From the NCBI GenBank assembly GCA_001769505.1, contig MEOF01000069.1, forward strand, positions 1 to 64,000: a stretch of DNA of 64,000 nucleotides, in the 5' to 3' direction. Positions 11,743 through 47,155 of this stretch are shown here, piece after piece. The position numbers and the translations under genes are program-made. The notes beneath the pieces were generated by a model. That model had not been told where the DNA came from and searched no databases. It worked only from the letters and a program-made list of their open reading frames with translations. This stretch comes from Bacteroidetes bacterium GWF2_33_38 (GTDB taxonomy: Bacteria > Bacteroidota > Bacteroidia > Bacteroidales > GWF2-33-38). Numbering within the stretch: the stretch's first letter is position 1; each line of letters begins with the position of its first letter.

Positions 11743-12822
11743 TTACAGAACCTTTCCTTTTTGAATTAAGAAAAAATCTGTAATTGTTATTGCAGCCATC
11801 GCTTCGACAATAGGAACAGCACGTGGAACAAAACACACGTCGTGTCGTCCTTTGGGTTTAATGGTCGTTTCTTCCTTATTTGTATTTACTGTGTTTTGTT
11901 CTTTAAAAATAGTTGCTGTAGGTTTAAAAGCAATATTGAAGTAAATATCTTCTCCGTTCGAAATTCCACCTTGAATTCCTCCTGAATGATTTGTTTTTGT
12001 TCGTATTTTGTTATCTCTTATTATAAACTCATCGTTATGCTCAGAGCCTTTCATCTGAGCAGAATAAAAACCTTCGCCAAACGAAACTCCTCGACTTGCA
12101 TTAATGCTCATCATCGCTTTTGCCAACTGAGCAGTGAGTTTATCGAAAACGGGTTCGCCTAAACCAGCTGGAACATTTTTAATCACACAAGTAATCACGC
12201 CTCCAATACTGTCAAATGATTTATGAACCTCGTGCAACAAATCAATCATTTTATTGCTAATCTCAATATCCGGACATTTAACTTCACTTTTTTCAATAGT
12301 AGATAAGTCAATTTCGGAATAATGTTTTTCGAGTTTTATATTTCCAATTTGGCAAACATAAGCCATTATTGAAATGTTATGTTTTTGCAAAAAATGTTTA
12401 GCAATTGCACCTCCAACAACTCTTGAAGCTGTTTCTCGAGCCGAAGAACGTCCTCCGCCTCTGTAGTCGCGAATTCCATATTTTGCATCGTAAACAAAAT
12501 CGGCATGAGAAGGACGATATGTTGTTTTTATCGATTCGTAATCTCCAGACTTAACATCGCTATTTTTTATTAAATATGCGATGGGAGTTCCCGTAGTTAT
12601 GTCTTCAAAAATTCCTGAGAGAAATTCAACTTTTTCTTCTTCATTTCGGTGCGATGTATAGAATGATTGAGAAGGTTTACGACGATTAAGTTCAGATTGA
12701 ATAAAATCGAAATTCAATTTAATCCCAGCTGGACATCCGTCAATTACGCCTCCAATTGCAGTTCCATGAGATTCGCCAAAACTTGTAATCTTAAATATAG
12801 TTCCAAAAGTATTTCCTGACAT
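11743..12822 (-). CDS. aroC: Chorismate synthase
   Basis: I choose the ATG at 12822 (359 residues, MSGNTFGTIFKITSFGESHG) because this is the conserved family N-terminus; an upstream ATG at 12891 would overlap the nitroreductase. The enzyme converts EPSP to chorismate using reduced FMN. Signatures seen are SFGESHG, the RGGGRSSARETASRVVGGA FMN/phosphate-binding stretch, MSINASRGVSFGEGF and KPKGRHDVCFVPRAVPIVEA. It starts one base past the nitroreductase stop, so the two are co-transcribed. Its product is the substrate of MqnA encoded at 61029. Confidence 0.97.
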   Translation of the reverse strand: MSGNTFGTIFKITSFGESHGTAIGGVIDGCPAGIKLNFDFIQSELNRRKPSQSFYTSHRNEEEKVEFLSGIFEDITTGTPIAYLIKNSDVKSGDYESIKTTYRPSHADFVYDAKYGIRDYRGGGRSSARETASRVVGGAIAKHFLQKHNISIMAYVCQIGNIKLEKHYSEIDLSTIEKSEVKCPDIEISNKMIDLLHEVHKSFDSIGGVITCVIKNVPAGLGEPVFDKLTAQLAKAMMSINASRGVSFGEGFYSAQMKGSEHNDEFIIRDNKIRTKTNHSGGIQGGISNGEDIYFNIAFKPTATIFKEQNTVNTNKEETTIKPKGRHDVCFVPRAVPIVEAMAAITITDFFLIQKGKVL

Positions 12823-12823
12823 A

Positions 12824-13333
12824 TTACCAACGATTAAAGTGAATTTTATTGCTATCGTAACGATTGGTTGTATGAGGATTTTCGTCAGCATATCCCAATG
12901 CTACTAAAGAAAAAGGAACGATGTCTTCGGGTAAATTCAAATATTTTTTAAGTCCATTTTCGCGATCTTCTCTTGGATATACACCTAACCAAACACTTCC
13001 AATGCCTAAACTATATGCTTGAAGTAGAATATTTTGTGTAACTGCTGCTAAATCTTGAATCCAGAAACCATCGGATTTAACTTTTTGGTGATTGTGGCAC
13101 ACCAAAATTGCTAAAGGAGCTTGTTTTAGCATATTTGCATAAGGATGAATTTCTGAAATATCATCAAGCATTTGTCTATTGTTTATAACCACAAACTCAA
13201 ACGTTTGTTGATTTCTTGCTGTGGGAGCGTACATTGCAGCTTTTAGAATATCTTCAACTTTCTGAATTTCGATATTTTGATTCTTAAATCGACGAATGCT
13301 TCTTCGATTAATGATACAATTTAACACGTCCAT
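12824..13333 (-). CDS. Nitroreductase-family FMN oxidoreductase
   Basis: A 169-residue FMN-dependent oxidoreductase. The N-terminal phosphate/FMN-binding RRSIRRFKNQNIE, the APTARNQQTFEFVVI segment and the GIGSVWLGVYPR stretch are diagnostic. Physiological substrates of this family are usually unknown. It is the first gene of a leftward pair with aroC; a flavin link is possible because AroC needs reduced FMN, but that is inference. Confidence 0.9.
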   Translation of the reverse strand: MDVLNCIINRRSIRRFKNQNIEIQKVEDILKAAMYAPTARNQQTFEFVVINNRQMLDDISEIHPYANMLKQAPLAILVCHNHQKVKSDGFWIQDLAAVTQNILLQAYSLGIGSVWLGVYPREDRENGLKKYLNLPEDIVPFSLVALGYADENPHTTNRYDSNKIHFNRW

Positions 13334-13570
13334 AAAAAATAATTTTAGTAAAGATATAAAAAACCAAATAATCTAATAATAATAGGTAGGGTATATTTTA
13401 CAATGTCTTGATTATTAGCTAGATTTATTATATCCGTTCGGAATCATAAAAATCCTAAAAATCAGCACATTGTCATTTCGAAGATAGGATAAATCTAAAA
13501 TATTAACGAACCATTGTAATAGCAATTCGATTGCATCAATATGTAACGAATTTTTCAAAATACTACATTA
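13334..13570. other. Non-coding region next to the clpB relic
   Basis: AT-rich with no intact ORF. A 21-base segment at 13491-13511, read on the minus strand, matches 20 of 21 bases at 47005-47025, the only recognisable feature. It may be decayed sequence left behind when the neighbouring clpB was lost. Confidence 0.5.
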
Positions 13571-13633
13571 TTATTGAAATATTGCTTGTTCTATAGCTTC
13601 TTGCGATTTTATTGTATATTTATCGAAATTCAT
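13571..13633 (-). pseudogene. Relic of clpB 5' end (20 codons)
   Basis: Reading leftward from ATG at 13633 gives MNFDKYTIKSQEAIEQAIFQ, then two stops. The first 17 residues match the N-terminus typical of Bacteroidota ClpB disaggregases, after which similarity stops abruptly. ClpB is normally over 800 residues and nothing downstream resembles the rest. I therefore read this as the stub of a deleted or rearranged clpB. The residues are too conserved for a chance ORF. Confidence 0.7.
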
Positions 13634-13666
13634 AAGATATTTTTTTATTTTTACTGTTGACAAATT

Positions 13667-13708
13667 GATTGCCAACGAAAATTTTGTCTTTCTTTTGACA
13701 AATTGACA
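13667..13708. promoter_or_regulatory. Paired TTGACAAATTGA direct repeats
   Basis: TTGACAAATTGA at 13667-13678 is repeated as TTGACAAATTGACA at 13695-13708; the second copy is itself two TGACA units three bases apart. The pair lies between the divergent clpB stub and the T9SS gene. It overlaps the -33 element of the rightward promoter, so it could be an operator for either direction. No regulator is known to me for it here. Confidence 0.45.
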
Positions 13709-13722
13709 TATATTTACGTTTG
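13694..13722 (+). promoter_or_regulatory. Promoter of the T9SS type B gene
   Basis: TTTG at 13694-13697 and TACGTTTG at 13715-13722, spacer 17 bases, fit the Bacteroidota promoter pattern. The ATG follows about 30 bases later at 13753. Confidence 0.5.
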
Positions 13723-13752: not shown

Positions 13753-16491
13753 ATGTTTAGGTATTTTTTAATATTATTTTTATCGACCTTATCATACAGT
13801 TTAATAGCTCAAGAGGTTATTATAAACGAAATTATGGCAAATCCTGCTGGAAATGATACGACTTTTGAATCAAGTATAAATGCCAATTCGCTATATAATC
13901 TTTATTCAAACTATCAACCTCCTCAAAATAAAGAATGGATTGAATTATTTAATCCTAGTAATACCGATACTGTTGATATAAGTTGTTATACACTTGGTTC
14001 AAATGCCTATGACTATTCTTCGGGCTCTGAAAATTGGGGAGCCTTAACTTTTCCCGAAGGAACAATTATTTTACCTCGACAATATTTGATTGTTGGAGGA
14101 AACGACTCAGATGTGCCATTTTTAGATTTTGATTTGAATTACTATTACGAAAACTACTTTCAATCTCAATATCTTGATGGAGATTCGTATCGTTGGTTTT
14201 TGCGAAATCAATGGGGGTGGATTGCATTATACAATGAAGTAGGAGAGCCAGTTGATGCTGTATATTGGGTTGATTCTTTGTCGTCAAGTGATGATTTATA
14301 CACAATGTCGCAATTCAATACAGTTTTAAGTACATCAACAGCATGTTCAGGCTATATGAATTTTACTTCAGCTGCAGAAATAAGCAATATCGAATTTGCA
14401 GGATTTATTCCGAGCGAAAATATTTCGTTTCAACGCGATTTTGATGAGAGTTCGCATTGGAATATTTCGGAAAATCCTAGTCCAGGCAGTTGTAATGGGG
14501 GAGAATGTTTAGATTTTTTGTACCAAACCGTTTGCAGCGATGATACAACTTTTTTTACCTTGATAATTAATGATTTTATAGTTTTAGATTCCATAAAATG
14601 GTTCTTTGATGATACTATAAGTGGTTCTAATAATATTTCATATGATGAAAATCCATATCACATTTTCAGCGATGCCGGAAACTATAATGTAACAGTAATT
14701 GCATACTACAATAATAATTACGATAGCCTCACAAAAAACGTAACAGTATTAACTAGACCGTTTATTGATTTGGGTGCAGATATCGAAATTTGTAATGATG
14801 ATTCGGTCGTTTTAAATGCAGGTGCTATTTACATGAGTTATTTTTGGAATACAGGAAGTACTGCTTCGAGTATATCTGCCGATACTTCGGGAATATATTG
14901 GCTTCGGGTTTCAAATGGGACTTGTTATGCTTATGATTCAATAACCGTTTCGTATTTTCCTTTTCCACCAAATTTTAATTTAGGAAACGATACTGCAATT
15001 TGCCATACTCAAGATATAACTTTTGATGCTGGCAGCGGATTTCTCTCTTATCTTTGGCAAGATGGAAGCACAACGCAAACATTTTATGCGTCAACAATGA
15101 ATTGGTATTGGGTCGAAATCGAAAATATTGATGCTTGCAAATATATCGATTCAATTTTTTTAGCAACAACCGTTTATCCTGTTATTAATCTACCCGAAGA
15201 TACGCTAATTTGCGATGTTGATAGTTTTTTGATTGATGCAGAAAACCACTGGTCGTCGTATGCTTGGTCGACAGGCGAAAGCACTCAAATAATTTCGGTT
15301 ACTGAAACTAATATGTATTACATTACGGTTACCAACAATTGTGGAATTCAAAACGATTCATCGTTTATAAAAATTTCCCGAAAAGCAGACATTGACCTTT
15401 CTAACGATAGTTTGATTTGTAGTGGAGATACTATTGTACTTCAAATAGATAGTCTTTTAAACAATATTCTATGGTCAACAGGTGATACAAGTTATTTTAT
15501 TCAAATTTATAATGAAGGCGAATACATCGTGAGTGTTGAAAATGAATGTGGGGTAAAAATCGACACTTGTAATGTAATATTTCAAGCAAATCCATTCATC
15601 GAACTTGGAGTTGACACAATTATATGTGATAGCAGTTTTTATTTTCTTCCAATCTCAAATAGTAACGACATCGTAAATTGGATTTGGTCAACAGGAGACA
15701 CGCTTCCAAACATTAGTGTTTTAGAAAGCAATACATATTACGTTACAGTTAGCAATATTTGTGAACATAGCATCGATTCCGTAAAAATAGAATTTGATAT
15801 TACACCTTTCTTTGAAATTTTGGATACCACAATTTGTATTGGCGATTCAATTTATATAGAAATCGACAGTTTGTACAATACGGTAATATGGTCGACCGGA
15901 GACACTACGAATAATTTTTTAATTACGAATTCGGGCGAGTATATTGCCGAAGTTCAAAATTTGTGTGGAAGTTGGAAAGATACATCTATTGTTACTTCAT
16001 TTGAATATCCAAATATATACTTAGGTAAGGATACAACCCTAGAAGAGGGAAATGTCTTACTTTTAGATGCAGAATTCCCCGAAGTTCAGTATTTGTGGAA
16101 TACTGATGATACAATTTCTACCATCGAAGTTAATGAAAGTGGAACATATTGGGTGCAAATTTCTAATTTTTGTGGCCTTGCAACCGATACAATTACCATA
16201 AACTTTACAAATTGTTCGATAAAAATTGAAGTTCCTAATGTTTTTACGCCTAATGGAGACGGCATTAACGATGCAATATTGCTTTACAATAATTGCGAAG
16301 TTGAATTAACTATGAATGTATATACTCGATGGGGAGCCTTAGTCTATCAAAATACAGCCGAGGTTATTTGCTGGGAAGGTCGAACTTTTGCAGGAAAAGA
16401 ACTGAACACCGGAGTTTATTTCTACACCTTAGAATACAATTTTGAAGACAATACAGAAAAACTTTCCGGATTTATTCATATTGTAAAGTAG
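13753..16491 (+). CDS. T9SS type B secreted protein: lamin-tail, PKD and seven Ig-like repeats
   Basis: A 912-residue secreted protein. A signal peptide ends near residue 20 (SYSLIAQ). A lamin-tail domain follows (EVIINEIMANPAG, KEWIELFNPS, GTIILPRQYLIVGG). A PKD-like module lies at ~255-325. Then come seven degenerate repeats of ~70 residues beginning near 336, 407, 477, 546, 615, 686 and 754, each with a xLGxDTxIC start, a W(S/N)TG(D/S)T centre and a YxVxVxNxCG end. The C-terminus (~826-912, VPNVFTPNGDGIND to GVYFYTLEY) is the gliding-motility-associated type B sorting domain. It is likely an adhesin or surface scaffold; no catalytic domain is seen. Confidence 0.88.
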   Translation: MFRYFLILFLSTLSYSLIAQEVIINEIMANPAGNDTTFESSINANSLYNLYSNYQPPQNKEWIELFNPSNTDTVDISCYTLGSNAYDYSSGSENWGALTFPEGTIILPRQYLIVGGNDSDVPFLDFDLNYYYENYFQSQYLDGDSYRWFLRNQWGWIALYNEVGEPVDAVYWVDSLSSSDDLYTMSQFNTVLSTSTACSGYMNFTSAAEISNIEFAGFIPSENISFQRDFDESSHWNISENPSPGSCNGGECLDFLYQTVCSDDTTFFTLIINDFIVLDSIKWFFDDTISGSNNISYDENPYHIFSDAGNYNVTVIAYYNNNYDSLTKNVTVLTRPFIDLGADIEICNDDSVVLNAGAIYMSYFWNTGSTASSISADTSGIYWLRVSNGTCYAYDSITVSYFPFPPNFNLGNDTAICHTQDITFDAGSGFLSYLWQDGSTTQTFYASTMNWYWVEIENIDACKYIDSIFLATTVYPVINLPEDTLICDVDSFLIDAENHWSSYAWSTGESTQIISVTETNMYYITVTNNCGIQNDSSFIKISRKADIDLSNDSLICSGDTIVLQIDSLLNNILWSTGDTSYFIQIYNEGEYIVSVENECGVKIDTCNVIFQANPFIELGVDTIICDSSFYFLPISNSNDIVNWIWSTGDTLPNISVLESNTYYVTVSNICEHSIDSVKIEFDITPFFEILDTTICIGDSIYIEIDSLYNTVIWSTGDTTNNFLITNSGEYIAEVQNLCGSWKDTSIVTSFEYPNIYLGKDTTLEEGNVLLLDAEFPEVQYLWNTDDTISTIEVNESGTYWVQISNFCGLATDTITINFTNCSIKIEVPNVFTPNGDGINDAILLYNNCEVELTMNVYTRWGALVYQNTAEVICWEGRTFAGKELNTGVYFYTLEYNFEDNTEKLSGFIHIVK

Positions 16492-17180: not shown

Positions 17181-17543
17181 TTATGATTCATCAACTTTTA
17201 AAACGTCTTTTATCGCTTTTTTAAAAGTATCTTTTGGCAAAGCTCCCATTGCCATTTGTGGTTGACCTTCCAAAGGAACAAATAACAAAGATGGAATGCT
17301 TCTGATTCCAAACATACCAGCCAATTCTTGTTCTTGTTCAGTATTTACTTTGTATATGTTTATTTTTCCGTTATATTCTTTTTGCAATTCTTCAAGAATA
17401 GGAGCAACCATTTTACAAGGAGAACACCAGTCTGCATAAAAATCTATCATACATGGAACGTTTCCTTCAAATTTCCATTCTTTATTTACTTCAAAGTTAA
17501 AAACTTTTGTTTTAAAAGTTTCTTGTGTCAAATGTTCGAGCAT
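17181..17543 (-). CDS. Thioredoxin, cytoplasmic paralogue
   Basis: A 120-residue thioredoxin without a signal peptide, starting MLEHLTQETFK. The redox site is DWCSPC within FYADWCSPCKMVAPIL, with Ser replacing the usual Gly between the cysteines, and the cis-Pro loop is GIRSIPSLLF. It reduces disulfides in client proteins. It is first in a leftward pair with the lipoprotein paralogue. Confidence 0.9.
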   Translation of the reverse strand: MLEHLTQETFKTKVFNFEVNKEWKFEGNVPCMIDFYADWCSPCKMVAPILEELQKEYNGKINIYKVNTEQEQELAGMFGIRSIPSLLFVPLEGQPQMAMGALPKDTFKKAIKDVLKVDES

Positions 17544-17592
17544 AATTTTAAGTATTAATTTATTAATTTAAAAATTCACATATCAACATATA

Positions 17593-17654
17593 TGCCAATA
17601 TTAAAATTTTGGCAAATCTAGTAAATTTGGACTAAATAAGTTGTAATTTTGGCA
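17593..17654. repeat. TTGGCA repeats upstream of the thioredoxin pair
   Basis: TGCCAA at 17593-17598 pairs with TTGGCA at 17609-17614, and AATTTTGGCA occurs both at 17605-17614 and 17645-17654. On the minus strand TAGATTTG (17620 to 17613) matches the TAnnTTTG -7 element, but no clear -33 is visible. This may be the control region of the thioredoxin operon. The rest of 17544-17802 is plain AT-rich DNA. Confidence 0.3.
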
Positions 17655-29964: not shown

Positions 29965-32493
29965 ATGGATGCTAAATTTTCACAAAAAATCAAAGATGTT
30001 CTTACTTACAGTAAGGAAGAAGCGATACGGCTTGGTAATGAATATATTGGTTCGGAGCACCTCGTTTTGGGAATGTTACGCGAATCGGAAGGTGTTGCTA
30101 TAGAGATTTTAAATTCATTAAAAGTTAATTTGCATGAATTAAGAATGGAAATAGAAGCTAAAATAAAGCCAGAAAATTTTGAGCAAATTAAAGTTAACGA
30201 TAATATTCCTCTATTAAAACAAACTGAACGAACATTAAAATTAGTTTATTTGGAGGCAAAAGATTTAAAGAGTCAGACTATTGATACTGGACATTTATTA
30301 CTAGCCATTTTAAAAGACCATGAATCGATACCCACAAAGGCGTTAGCAAAATTTGATATTGATTATATTGTTGTAAAACAAAGCATTACTGAATTTAATC
30401 CAAAAATGAAATCAGACTATTCTGACGAAGGTTCTGATGAATCAACTTTTGGCGGAGCAGGTAAAGGTGCTCAAAAAAATCCTAAATCTAATTCTGATAC
30501 TCCTGTACTTGATAGTTTTGGCGTTGACATAACTAAAGCCGCTGAAGAAGGAAAACTTGATCCAATAGTTGGACGAGAGAGAGAAATTGAACGTTTAGCT
30601 CAGATTTTGAGTCGTAGAAAAAAGAATAACCCAGTCTTGATTGGAGAACCAGGAGTTGGAAAATCTGCAATTGCGGAAGGCTTAGCAATTAGGATAAATC
30701 AGAAAAAAGTATCACGAGTTTTGTTTGGAAAACGAGTTGTAACACTTGATTTAGCTTCAATTGTTGCAGGTACAAAATATCGTGGACAATTTGAAGAAAG
30801 AATGAAAGCTATTTTAAATGAGCTAGCAAAAACTACAGATATAATTTTATTCATTGACGAAATTCACACAATTGTTGGAGCTGGAGGAGCAACCGGTTCG
30901 CTTGATGCTGCAAATATGCTAAAACCGGCACTGGCTAGAGGCGAAATCCAATGTATTGGAGCAACTACCCTTGATGAATATCGTCAGCACATTGAAAAAG
31001 ATGGTGCTCTTGAAAGACGTTTTCAAAAAGTAATGGTTGAACCAACATCATATGAAGAAACTATCGAAATTTTAAATAATATCAAAGAACGATACGAAGA
31101 ACATCACAATGTTACATACACACCTGAAGCAATAGAGGCTTGTGTGAAATTGACATTACGTTATGTAAGCGATAGACATTTGCCAGATAAAGCAATTGAT
31201 GCACTTGACGAAGCTGGCTCAAGAGTACATATCTCGAATATTCATGTTCCTAAAAAAATCATTGAAATTGAAAAAGATATTGAAAAAGTTCGCTTGGATA
31301 AGGTAAGTTCTGTTAAAAATCAAAACTTTGAACAAGCAGTTATTCTTCGAGATAAGGAAAAAGATTTATTGAAACTTCTTGATGATGAAAAGAAAAATTG
31401 GGAAAAAGAATTAATAAAACATCGTCAAATAGTTACAGATGATAATGTTGCCGAAGTTGTTGCCATGATGACGGGCGTTCCTGCTCAGCGAATTGCTCAA
31501 GCTGAAGGGACAAAGCTAATAAAAATGGCAGATGAACTTAGAAGTAGAGTTATCGGTCAAAACGAAGCCATAGAAAAAATCGTAAAATCAATTCATAGAA
31601 ATAGAGCCGGTTTAAAAGATCCAAATAAACCAATTGGAACTTTTGTGTTCTTAGGTCCAACAGGAGTTGGAAAAACTCAATTAGCTAAAGTATTATCTAA
31701 TCTTTTATTCGATAATAATGATGCTCTTATTCGAATTGATATGAGCGAATATATGGAGAAATTTTCTGTTTCGCGATTAGTCGGGGCTCCTCCAGGCTAT
31801 GTTGGATATGAAGAAGGCGGACAATTGACCGAAAAAGTCAGACGAAAACCATATTCTGTTATTTTGCTTGATGAAATTGAAAAAGCTCATCCTGATGTTT
31901 TCAATATTTTGTTACAAGTTTTAGACGAAGGTCGCTTAACTGATGGTTTAGGACGCAGAATTGATTTCAAAAATACAATTGTTATTATGACTTCGAACAT
32001 CGGCTCTCGCGAAATAAAAGAATATGGACGTGGGGTTGGCTTTGATACAAAAGCACGAGAAGAAGGTATGAAAGATGCTTCGAATAGTATTATTTCAAAA
32101 GCCTTAAAAAAAGCATTCGCCCCTGAATTTTTGAATCGTCTTGATGATGTAATAATGTTTAATCATCTATCTATTGACGATATTCATAAAATTATTGATA
32201 TCGAAATTAAAGGTTTATATAAACGAATCGAAGGCTTAGGGTACAAATTTAAGATTTCGGCTCAAGCAAAAGACTTTATTGCTTCGAAAGGCTACGACAT
32301 TCAATTTGGAGCAAGACCGCTAAAGCGAGCCATTCAAAAATATTTAGAAGACCCAATGGCTGAAGTTATTATTAATTCGTCTATTAGTCAGGAAGATACT
32401 ATCAATATTGGCTTCGATAGCAAGAAAGAAGAAATTAAAATAAATGTTATTAAAGCTAAAAAAGAAGAAGCAAGCGAAAAGGATTCAATTTAA
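29965..32493 (+). CDS. clpC: ClpC-type AAA+ protease ATPase
   Basis: An 842-residue Hsp100 unfoldase. The N-terminal Clp repeats (residues ~1-145, including [14 protein letters not shown] and [10 protein letters not shown]) precede two AAA+ modules with Walker A GEPGVGKS (~228) and GPTGVGKT (~562). Between them a UVR-like coiled segment ([16 protein letters not shown]) is shorter than the ClpB middle domain, which identifies ClpC rather than ClpB. It feeds substrates to ClpP; no clpP is in the window. Its stop overlaps the mnmD start by one base. Confidence 0.93.
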
Positions 32494-46897: not shown

Positions 46898-47155
46898 GTA
46901 GAAAATTTATATAAAAAAGGCTTATGCCAGATAAATGATTTATAAAAAGAATCCAGACAATACGCAAGACTTAATAAATTATTACAACGAATATTATAAT
47001 AGCAGTTCGTGAATATTTTAGATTTCACCGATATTTGAAAAGAAATGTACTTATTAGCGACGTTGATACTTCGAACAAATGGTATAATAAAAATTTAACG
47101 AACTATCAAGCCTAGCTAGATTGGGATACACTAGCTAAATTATAACATTAGGGAA

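What the first reader, a model, noticed from the sequence alone, without database searches (positions are those of the whole stretch)
13571..13633. Stub of a lost clpB, with its upstream region possibly still present
Twenty codons reproduce the start of Bacteroidota ClpB and then end in tandem stops. Upstream, two TTGACAAATTGA repeats remain, in the place where a heat-shock regulatory region would be. Loss of a general disaggregase, or a recombination event that moved it, is implied.
Basis: partly seen in the sequence, partly recalled or inferred. Interest (0 to 1): 0.5.

Follow-up and report, generated by a model that had tools for sequence, protein, structure and literature searches.

The report
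Leftover start of a deleted clpB
A Bacteroidota-like bacterium has apparently lost its ClpB protein-rescue chaperone and keeps only the gene's first 18 codons and its stress-type promoter region: ordinary gene loss caught with the switch still in place.

Summary
A DNA model of 37 relatives' clpB 5' ends, built without this genome, hits 13581-13644 (-) with 50.4 bits, E 7e-13 for the whole genome. Eighteen codons match ClpB; two more codons and tandem stops follow. No ClpB over the family cut-off was found in the 99%-complete assembly: the three matches are two halves of a ClpC-type paralogue (window 29965-32493) and one 21-bit hit.

The upstream region is still there. On the clpB strand it reads TGTCA-N3-TGTCA, then TTGGCA-N6-TTG shortly before the ATG. 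Upstream regions of groES and of part of the clpB genes in the order share this layout, as do this genome's groES and dnaK. It resembles a sigma54 (-24/-12) promoter; sigma54-type promoters for chaperones including clpB are published for Flavobacterium psychrophilum.

Thirteen of 59 relatives examined lack a ClpB-grade match; one of them, G041, has a likely, more decayed relic with the same kind of upstream site. Verdict: a real gene remnant from recurrent gene loss; modest interest.

The parts
13571..13633 (-). 20-codon stub ORF with tandem stops; codons 1-18 (13580-13633) are the clpB 5' end
   Evidence: R1 50.4 bits, E 7e-13; tblastn E 3e-4 and 1e-4; all 18 residues seen at the same place in 2 or more of 38 intact ClpBs
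13658..13676 (-). sigma54-like core box GTTGGCAATCAATTTGTCA, 24 nt before the ATG
   Evidence: 15.0 bits with a matrix trained on 29 Cpn10 upstream regions of relatives; 0 of 2000 shuffles reach it; rank 5 of 39. Second-best site in the window
13696..13708 (-). TGTCAATTTGTCA, upstream pair of TGTCA sites (probable activator site)
   Evidence: Only TGWCA-N3-TGWCA pair in the 64-kb window; pair in 9 of 38 clpB and 10 of 29 Cpn10 upstream regions, shuffles about 0
13694..13722 (+). TTTG-N17-TACGTTTG, housekeeping-type promoter candidate for the divergent gene, overlapping the upstream pair
   Evidence: Pattern match, 1.2% of mononucleotide shuffles of 113 nt; the consensus is recalled
13378..13519 (.). 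Interspersed repeat with imperfect inverted arms, downstream of the stub
   Evidence: 10 other places in the genome at E 1e-4 or better, two of them near full length; arms 70% complementary
12824..13333 (-). Nitroreductase-family gene, next gene downstream on the stub's strand
   Evidence: PF00881 E 1.5e-23; no NCBIfam cut-off reached
11743..12825 (-). aroC, chorismate synthase (start approximate)
   Evidence: TIGR00033 475 bits, over the cut-off
13753..16491 (+). Divergent gene: Lamin Tail Domain protein with type IX secretion signal
   Evidence: PF00932, PF13585
29965..32493 (+). ClpC-type Clp ATPase, a paralogue and not the missing ClpB
   Evidence: 911 bits against the ClpB model, cut-off 1232; the ClpC name is recalled

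Best explanation
This is the 5' relic of a genuine clpB. A deletion (inferred) removed everything from about codon 19 to beyond the gene's end, leaving 18 codons, the leader and a stress-type promoter: a TGTCA-N3-TGTCA site for an unknown activator and a sigma54-like TTGGCA-N6-TTG core. No intact copy is in the assembly, so the cell probably has no ClpB disaggregase; it keeps DnaK, GroES and a ClpC-type ATPase. Shown: homology of the stub, absence of ClpB from the assembly, shared layout of the upstream region. Inferred: the deletion, that the promoter can still fire, and that it survives because the loss is fairly recent and because the divergent gene's promoter overlaps the upstream site.
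For: R1 model E 7e-13; clpB starts of 15 relatives hit by the intergenic DNA; no ClpB over cut-off in the genome; 43 of 60 genomes in the sample, own included, have it; core box 15.0 bits, 0 of 2000 shuffles; same layout at own groES and dnaK; sigma54 gene present; differences from G001 at 4, 2, 10 codon positions 1, 2, 3 fit a late loss.
Against: Only 13 of 38 clpB upstream regions pass the pooled 95% shuffle level with the matrix, and the -12 half lacks the classic GC. Another window site, 17581-17599, scores higher, 15.8 bits. No same-genus genome was available to date the loss. No 3' remnant fixes the extent of the deletion. No reads were seen.
Confidence: 0.88

Rival explanations
1. Assembly mis-join: clpB is intact in the organism; the assembler jumped from codon 18 to unrelated DNA and the gene body was left out of the assembly.
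For: The genome is in 70 contigs, and a repeated element lies close by.
Against: Similarity ends about 50-60 nt before the repeat. No other ClpB piece over E 0.001 is in the genome except the paralogue and one 21-bit hit. Completeness is 99.12%. ClpB is absent from 13 of 59 relatives too.
Confidence: 0.07
2. The stub is a kept short ORF or leader with a function of its own, such as a stress-induced peptide or RNA, and the promoter is retained for it or for the genes downstream.
For: The core box is among the best of 39 clpB upstream regions. No terminator-like site was found between the stub and the nitroreductase. G041 also keeps an upstream pair beside a clpB relic.
Against: A late loss explains the same facts. 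RNA folding downstream is not notable (z -1.6), and Rfam has no match. In G041 the start codon is gone.
Confidence: 0.04
3. Chance resemblance of a short ORF to ClpB.
For: Only 18 codons match.
Against: E 7e-13 in the genome with an independent model, with a chaperone-type upstream region in front.
Confidence: 0.005

Closest known systems
Intact clpB of the same family (G001 contig C240, G002 contig C229)
   Same: First 18 codons 66.7% identical in amino acids with each; leader holds TGGCAATAAATTTGAC (G001) or TGGCAATAAATTTGAA (G002), with TGTCA/TGACA sites upstream
   Different: 863 codons instead of 20; other neighbouring genes
Sigma54-type chaperone promoters of Flavobacterium psychrophilum (PMC9723704, passages read)
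   Same: Chaperone genes including clpB start at promoters with the -24/-12 motif
   Different: There the gene is present and start sites were mapped; here the gene body is gone and nothing was measured
Likely clpB relic of G041 (L192:4715-4900)
   Same: Intergenic; TGTCA-N3-TGACA upstream; clpB 5' end only; no ClpB-grade match in the genome
   Different: Start codon lost, small internal deletion, no clear TTGGCA box; weak score (21.4 bits, E 0.001)

Membership tests
ClpB / Hsp100 disaggregase (TIGR03346) | Homologous N-terminal start | tested here: met
ClpB / Hsp100 disaggregase (TIGR03346) | Full-length protein with two AAA+ domains | tested here: not met
   20 codons; no ClpB over cut-off in the genome. 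A relic, not a member
Sigma54 promoter | GG at -24 and GC at -12, correctly spaced | tested here: inconclusive
   TTGGCA-N6-TTG present; the -12 half reads TTGTC here and TTGAC or TTGAA in G001 and G002; the consensus is recalled
Sigma54 promoter | Sigma54 encoded in the genome | tested here: met
   PF04552, E 3e-53
Sigma54 promoter | Transcription dependent on sigma54 and an activator | not testable with these tools
   Needs expression data
   In relatives the two places are different elements: an upstream pair and the core box

The most novel reading that the evidence does not exclude
The orphaned sigma54-type stress promoter is under selection after the loss of its gene: it puts the downstream nitroreductase and aroC, or a short stress RNA, under heat-shock control. 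G041 would then be a second, independent case in which the upstream site outlives clpB.
Probability: 0.08. Interest if true: 0.5.

Novelty: new member of a known kind. Interest (0 to 1): 0.3.

Why it matters
It is a snapshot of how a general disaggregase is lost: here the coding body is gone while the start and the promoter remain. It fits a wider picture in which clpB is dispensable in part of this order (no ClpB-grade match in 13 of 59 relatives examined). The comparison also gives a usable description of chaperone promoters in the order: TGTCA/TGACA sites above a TTGGCA-N6-TTG core.

Tried and rejected
Closer relatives: a genome-contig scan with the nitroreductase found none; one with AroC gave 18 loci of at most 61% identity, none from a near relative. 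In the 60-genome sample only G001 and G002 are of the same family; their clpB has other neighbours. A 119-aa gene downstream of their clpB (Hpt-type by recall) has its best counterpart here on contig C19, away from the stub. So neither the extent of the deletion nor a 3' flank could be fixed.

The Clp ATPase at 29965 as the moved clpB: rejected. It scores 911 bits against a ClpB cut-off of 1232, and G001, for one, has such a gene beside an intact ClpB. The repeat as agent of the deletion: possible, no evidence. CIRCE and CtsR operators were considered from memory and not tested with a tool.

R1 hits in ClpB-less relatives: G057's is the start of a polysaccharide biosynthesis gene; G019's reads as another frame, TPR-like by eye. 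Both are taken as chance. tblastn with ten full ClpBs (of 18 loci tried; eight dropped out by my length and motif rule) around the hits in G041, G057, G028 and G035 showed no clpB body: in G041 only a distant AAA match elsewhere (E 0.003), in G035 one hit of E 0.06. The remaining R1 hits in other ClpB-less genomes (E 0.015 to 1) were not followed. The G041 relic rests on E 0.001 in 1 of 13 genomes plus its upstream pair, a motif seen about 0.01 times per 150 nt in the loci held.

The pattern was written after seeing the stub, so its being the only match in the genome (control 0) is descriptive.

The promoter matrix was trained on 29 Cpn10 upstream regions; three of them (G011_L166, G015_L163, G014_L164) look unlike groES promoters and were left in. 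The genome's own groES was left out. Of 47 clpB loci examined, 8 gave no start by my pattern, leaving 39; G050 had too little upstream DNA, so 38 served. The 38 include G050 and leave out G046 (start offset). R1 used 37 (without G046 and G050). The output was cut in the middle.

Full report
WHAT IS THERE. On the minus strand, 13633-13571 encodes MNFDKYTIKSQEAIEQAIFQ and ends in TAA, with a second TAA next to it. It lies in a 419-nt intergenic stretch of 23% G+C between a nitroreductase-family gene (12824-13333, -), followed by aroC, and a divergent gene for a Lamin Tail Domain / type IX secretion protein (13753-16491, +).

IT IS CLPB. tblastn with the ClpB of G001 and G002 (same family) aligns residues 1-18 with E 3e-4 and 1e-4 in a 1.5-kb target. 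Searching 60 genomes, own included, with the intergenic DNA alone hit the clpB start of 15 relatives (places compared). A sequence model of 37 clpB 5' ends from relatives scores the stub at 50.4 bits, E 7.1e-13 for the genome; the next best place in this genome has E 0.010. All 18 residues are seen at the same position in at least 2 of 38 intact ClpBs. The first 57 nt differ from G001 at 4, 2 and 10 first, second and third codon positions, and from G002 at 4, 2 and 11; G001 and G002 differ from each other at 1, 0 and 8. Third positions still dominate, as in a working gene, which suggests a late loss, on small numbers.

THE REST IS GONE. The ClpB family model finds three matches in the genome: two halves of the Clp ATPase at 29965-32493 and a 21-bit hit; none reaches the cut-off. 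That ATPase scores 911 bits as a whole against a cut-off of 1232. I call it ClpC-type from recall; relatives such as G001 have such a gene beside an intact ClpB. No other clpB piece stood out around the stub: the best other alignments (E 0.013 and 0.031) run through stop codons and over the stub itself (output cut in the middle). The assembly is 99.12% complete, in 70 contigs. DnaK and GroES are present. Of the 60 genomes, own included, 43 have ClpB over the cut-off. Of the 16 relatives that do not, G010, G044 and G058 have truncated, contig-split or lower-scoring ClpB, and 13 have a best match of ClpC grade or weaker (the match list was cut, but the best E is given for every genome). Ten of the 13 are at least 94% complete. 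Lack of clpB is thus recurrent in the order.

THE PROMOTER IS STILL THERE. Read on the clpB strand, the upstream DNA holds TGTCAATTTGTCA (13708-13696) and then GTTGGCAATCAATTTGTCA (13676-13658), 24 nt before the ATG. Most of the 30 Cpn10 (groES-family) upstream regions looked at show TGTCA/TGACA sites above a TTTGGCA(C/T) box. A matrix trained on 29 of them, this genome left out, gives the stub's box 15.0 bits: none of 2000 dinucleotide shuffles reaches it, and it ranks 5th among 39 clpB upstream regions. Against this: only 13 of the 38 other clpB regions pass the pooled 95% shuffle level, so the box is far from universal at clpB; and in the window one other site scores higher (15.8 bits, 17581-17599, 38 nt before a thioredoxin gene). 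TGWCA sites average 1.5 per 200 nt upstream of clpB and 2.4 upstream of Cpn10 genes, against about 0.4 in shuffles; the pair with N3 occurs in 9 of 38 and 10 of 29, against about zero. In the 64-kb window the pair occurs once, here. In this genome groES (CATGGCAAAGTAATTGACT, 6.8 bits) and dnaK (AATGGCATAGTCATTGACT, 6.2 bits) have the same layout with TGWCA sites upstream; clpC has not. The genome encodes sigma54. The box resembles a sigma54 -24/-12 element, with the -12 half off the recalled consensus both here and in G001 and G002.

TTGACAAATTGA at 13695-13706 is part of the upstream pair; the copy at 13657-13668 covers the -12 half of the core box, where G001 has TGGCAATAAATTTGACA. They are two different elements that look alike. 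A housekeeping-type promoter candidate for the divergent gene (13694-13722, +) overlaps the upstream pair, which may help to preserve it.

DOWNSTREAM. Beyond the stops, 13378-13519 is an interspersed repeat with imperfect inverted arms, found in ten other places at E 1e-4 or better, two of them near full length. It may have taken part in the deletion; nothing shows it. The stretch has no Rfam match, no terminator-like site and no notable fold (z -1.6).

A LIKELY SECOND RELIC. Model R1 on the 13 ClpB-less relatives gave no hit as strong as this stub. The best, G041 (21.4 bits, E 0.001), is intergenic, lacks the start codon, reads NLNGNNFTLKSQ..KIASRLKHQAV, and has TGTCATTTTGACA roughly 95 nt upstream. 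I take it as a more decayed clpB relic. The hits in G057 and G019 are taken as chance.

LITERATURE. In PMC9723704 (passages read) clpB, groES-groEL, dnaK, grpE-dnaJ and htpG of F. psychrophilum are listed with promoters of the sigma54 motif. PMC12316311 (passages read) predicts a chaperone cluster as enriched for sigma54 control in Bacteroidota. Five full-text searches listed no paper whose title or abstract start describes a clpB relic with its promoter or a TGTCA activator site at chaperones; only those listings were seen, so this is no claim that none exists.

VERDICT. A real, well-supported clpB relic with its stress-type promoter in place: ordinary, recurrent gene loss.

Noticed in passing
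L192:4715-4900 (G041, contig C10): Likely second clpB relic in a ClpB-less relative: TGTCATTTTGACA, then a degenerate clpB 5' end without start codon.
   Followed up: partly
window 17581-17599 (-): Best sigma54-like box of the window (15.8 bits with the groES-trained matrix), 38 nt before a thioredoxin gene (17181-17543), which may belong to the same regulon.
   Followed up: no
window 13378-13519 and 47005-47055: Interspersed repeat of about 140 nt with imperfect inverted arms, ten further places in the genome at E 1e-4 or better.
   Followed up: partly
G010:C14:54488-56629: A relative's ClpB matches only model positions 145-851, as if the N-terminal domain had been lost.
   Followed up: no
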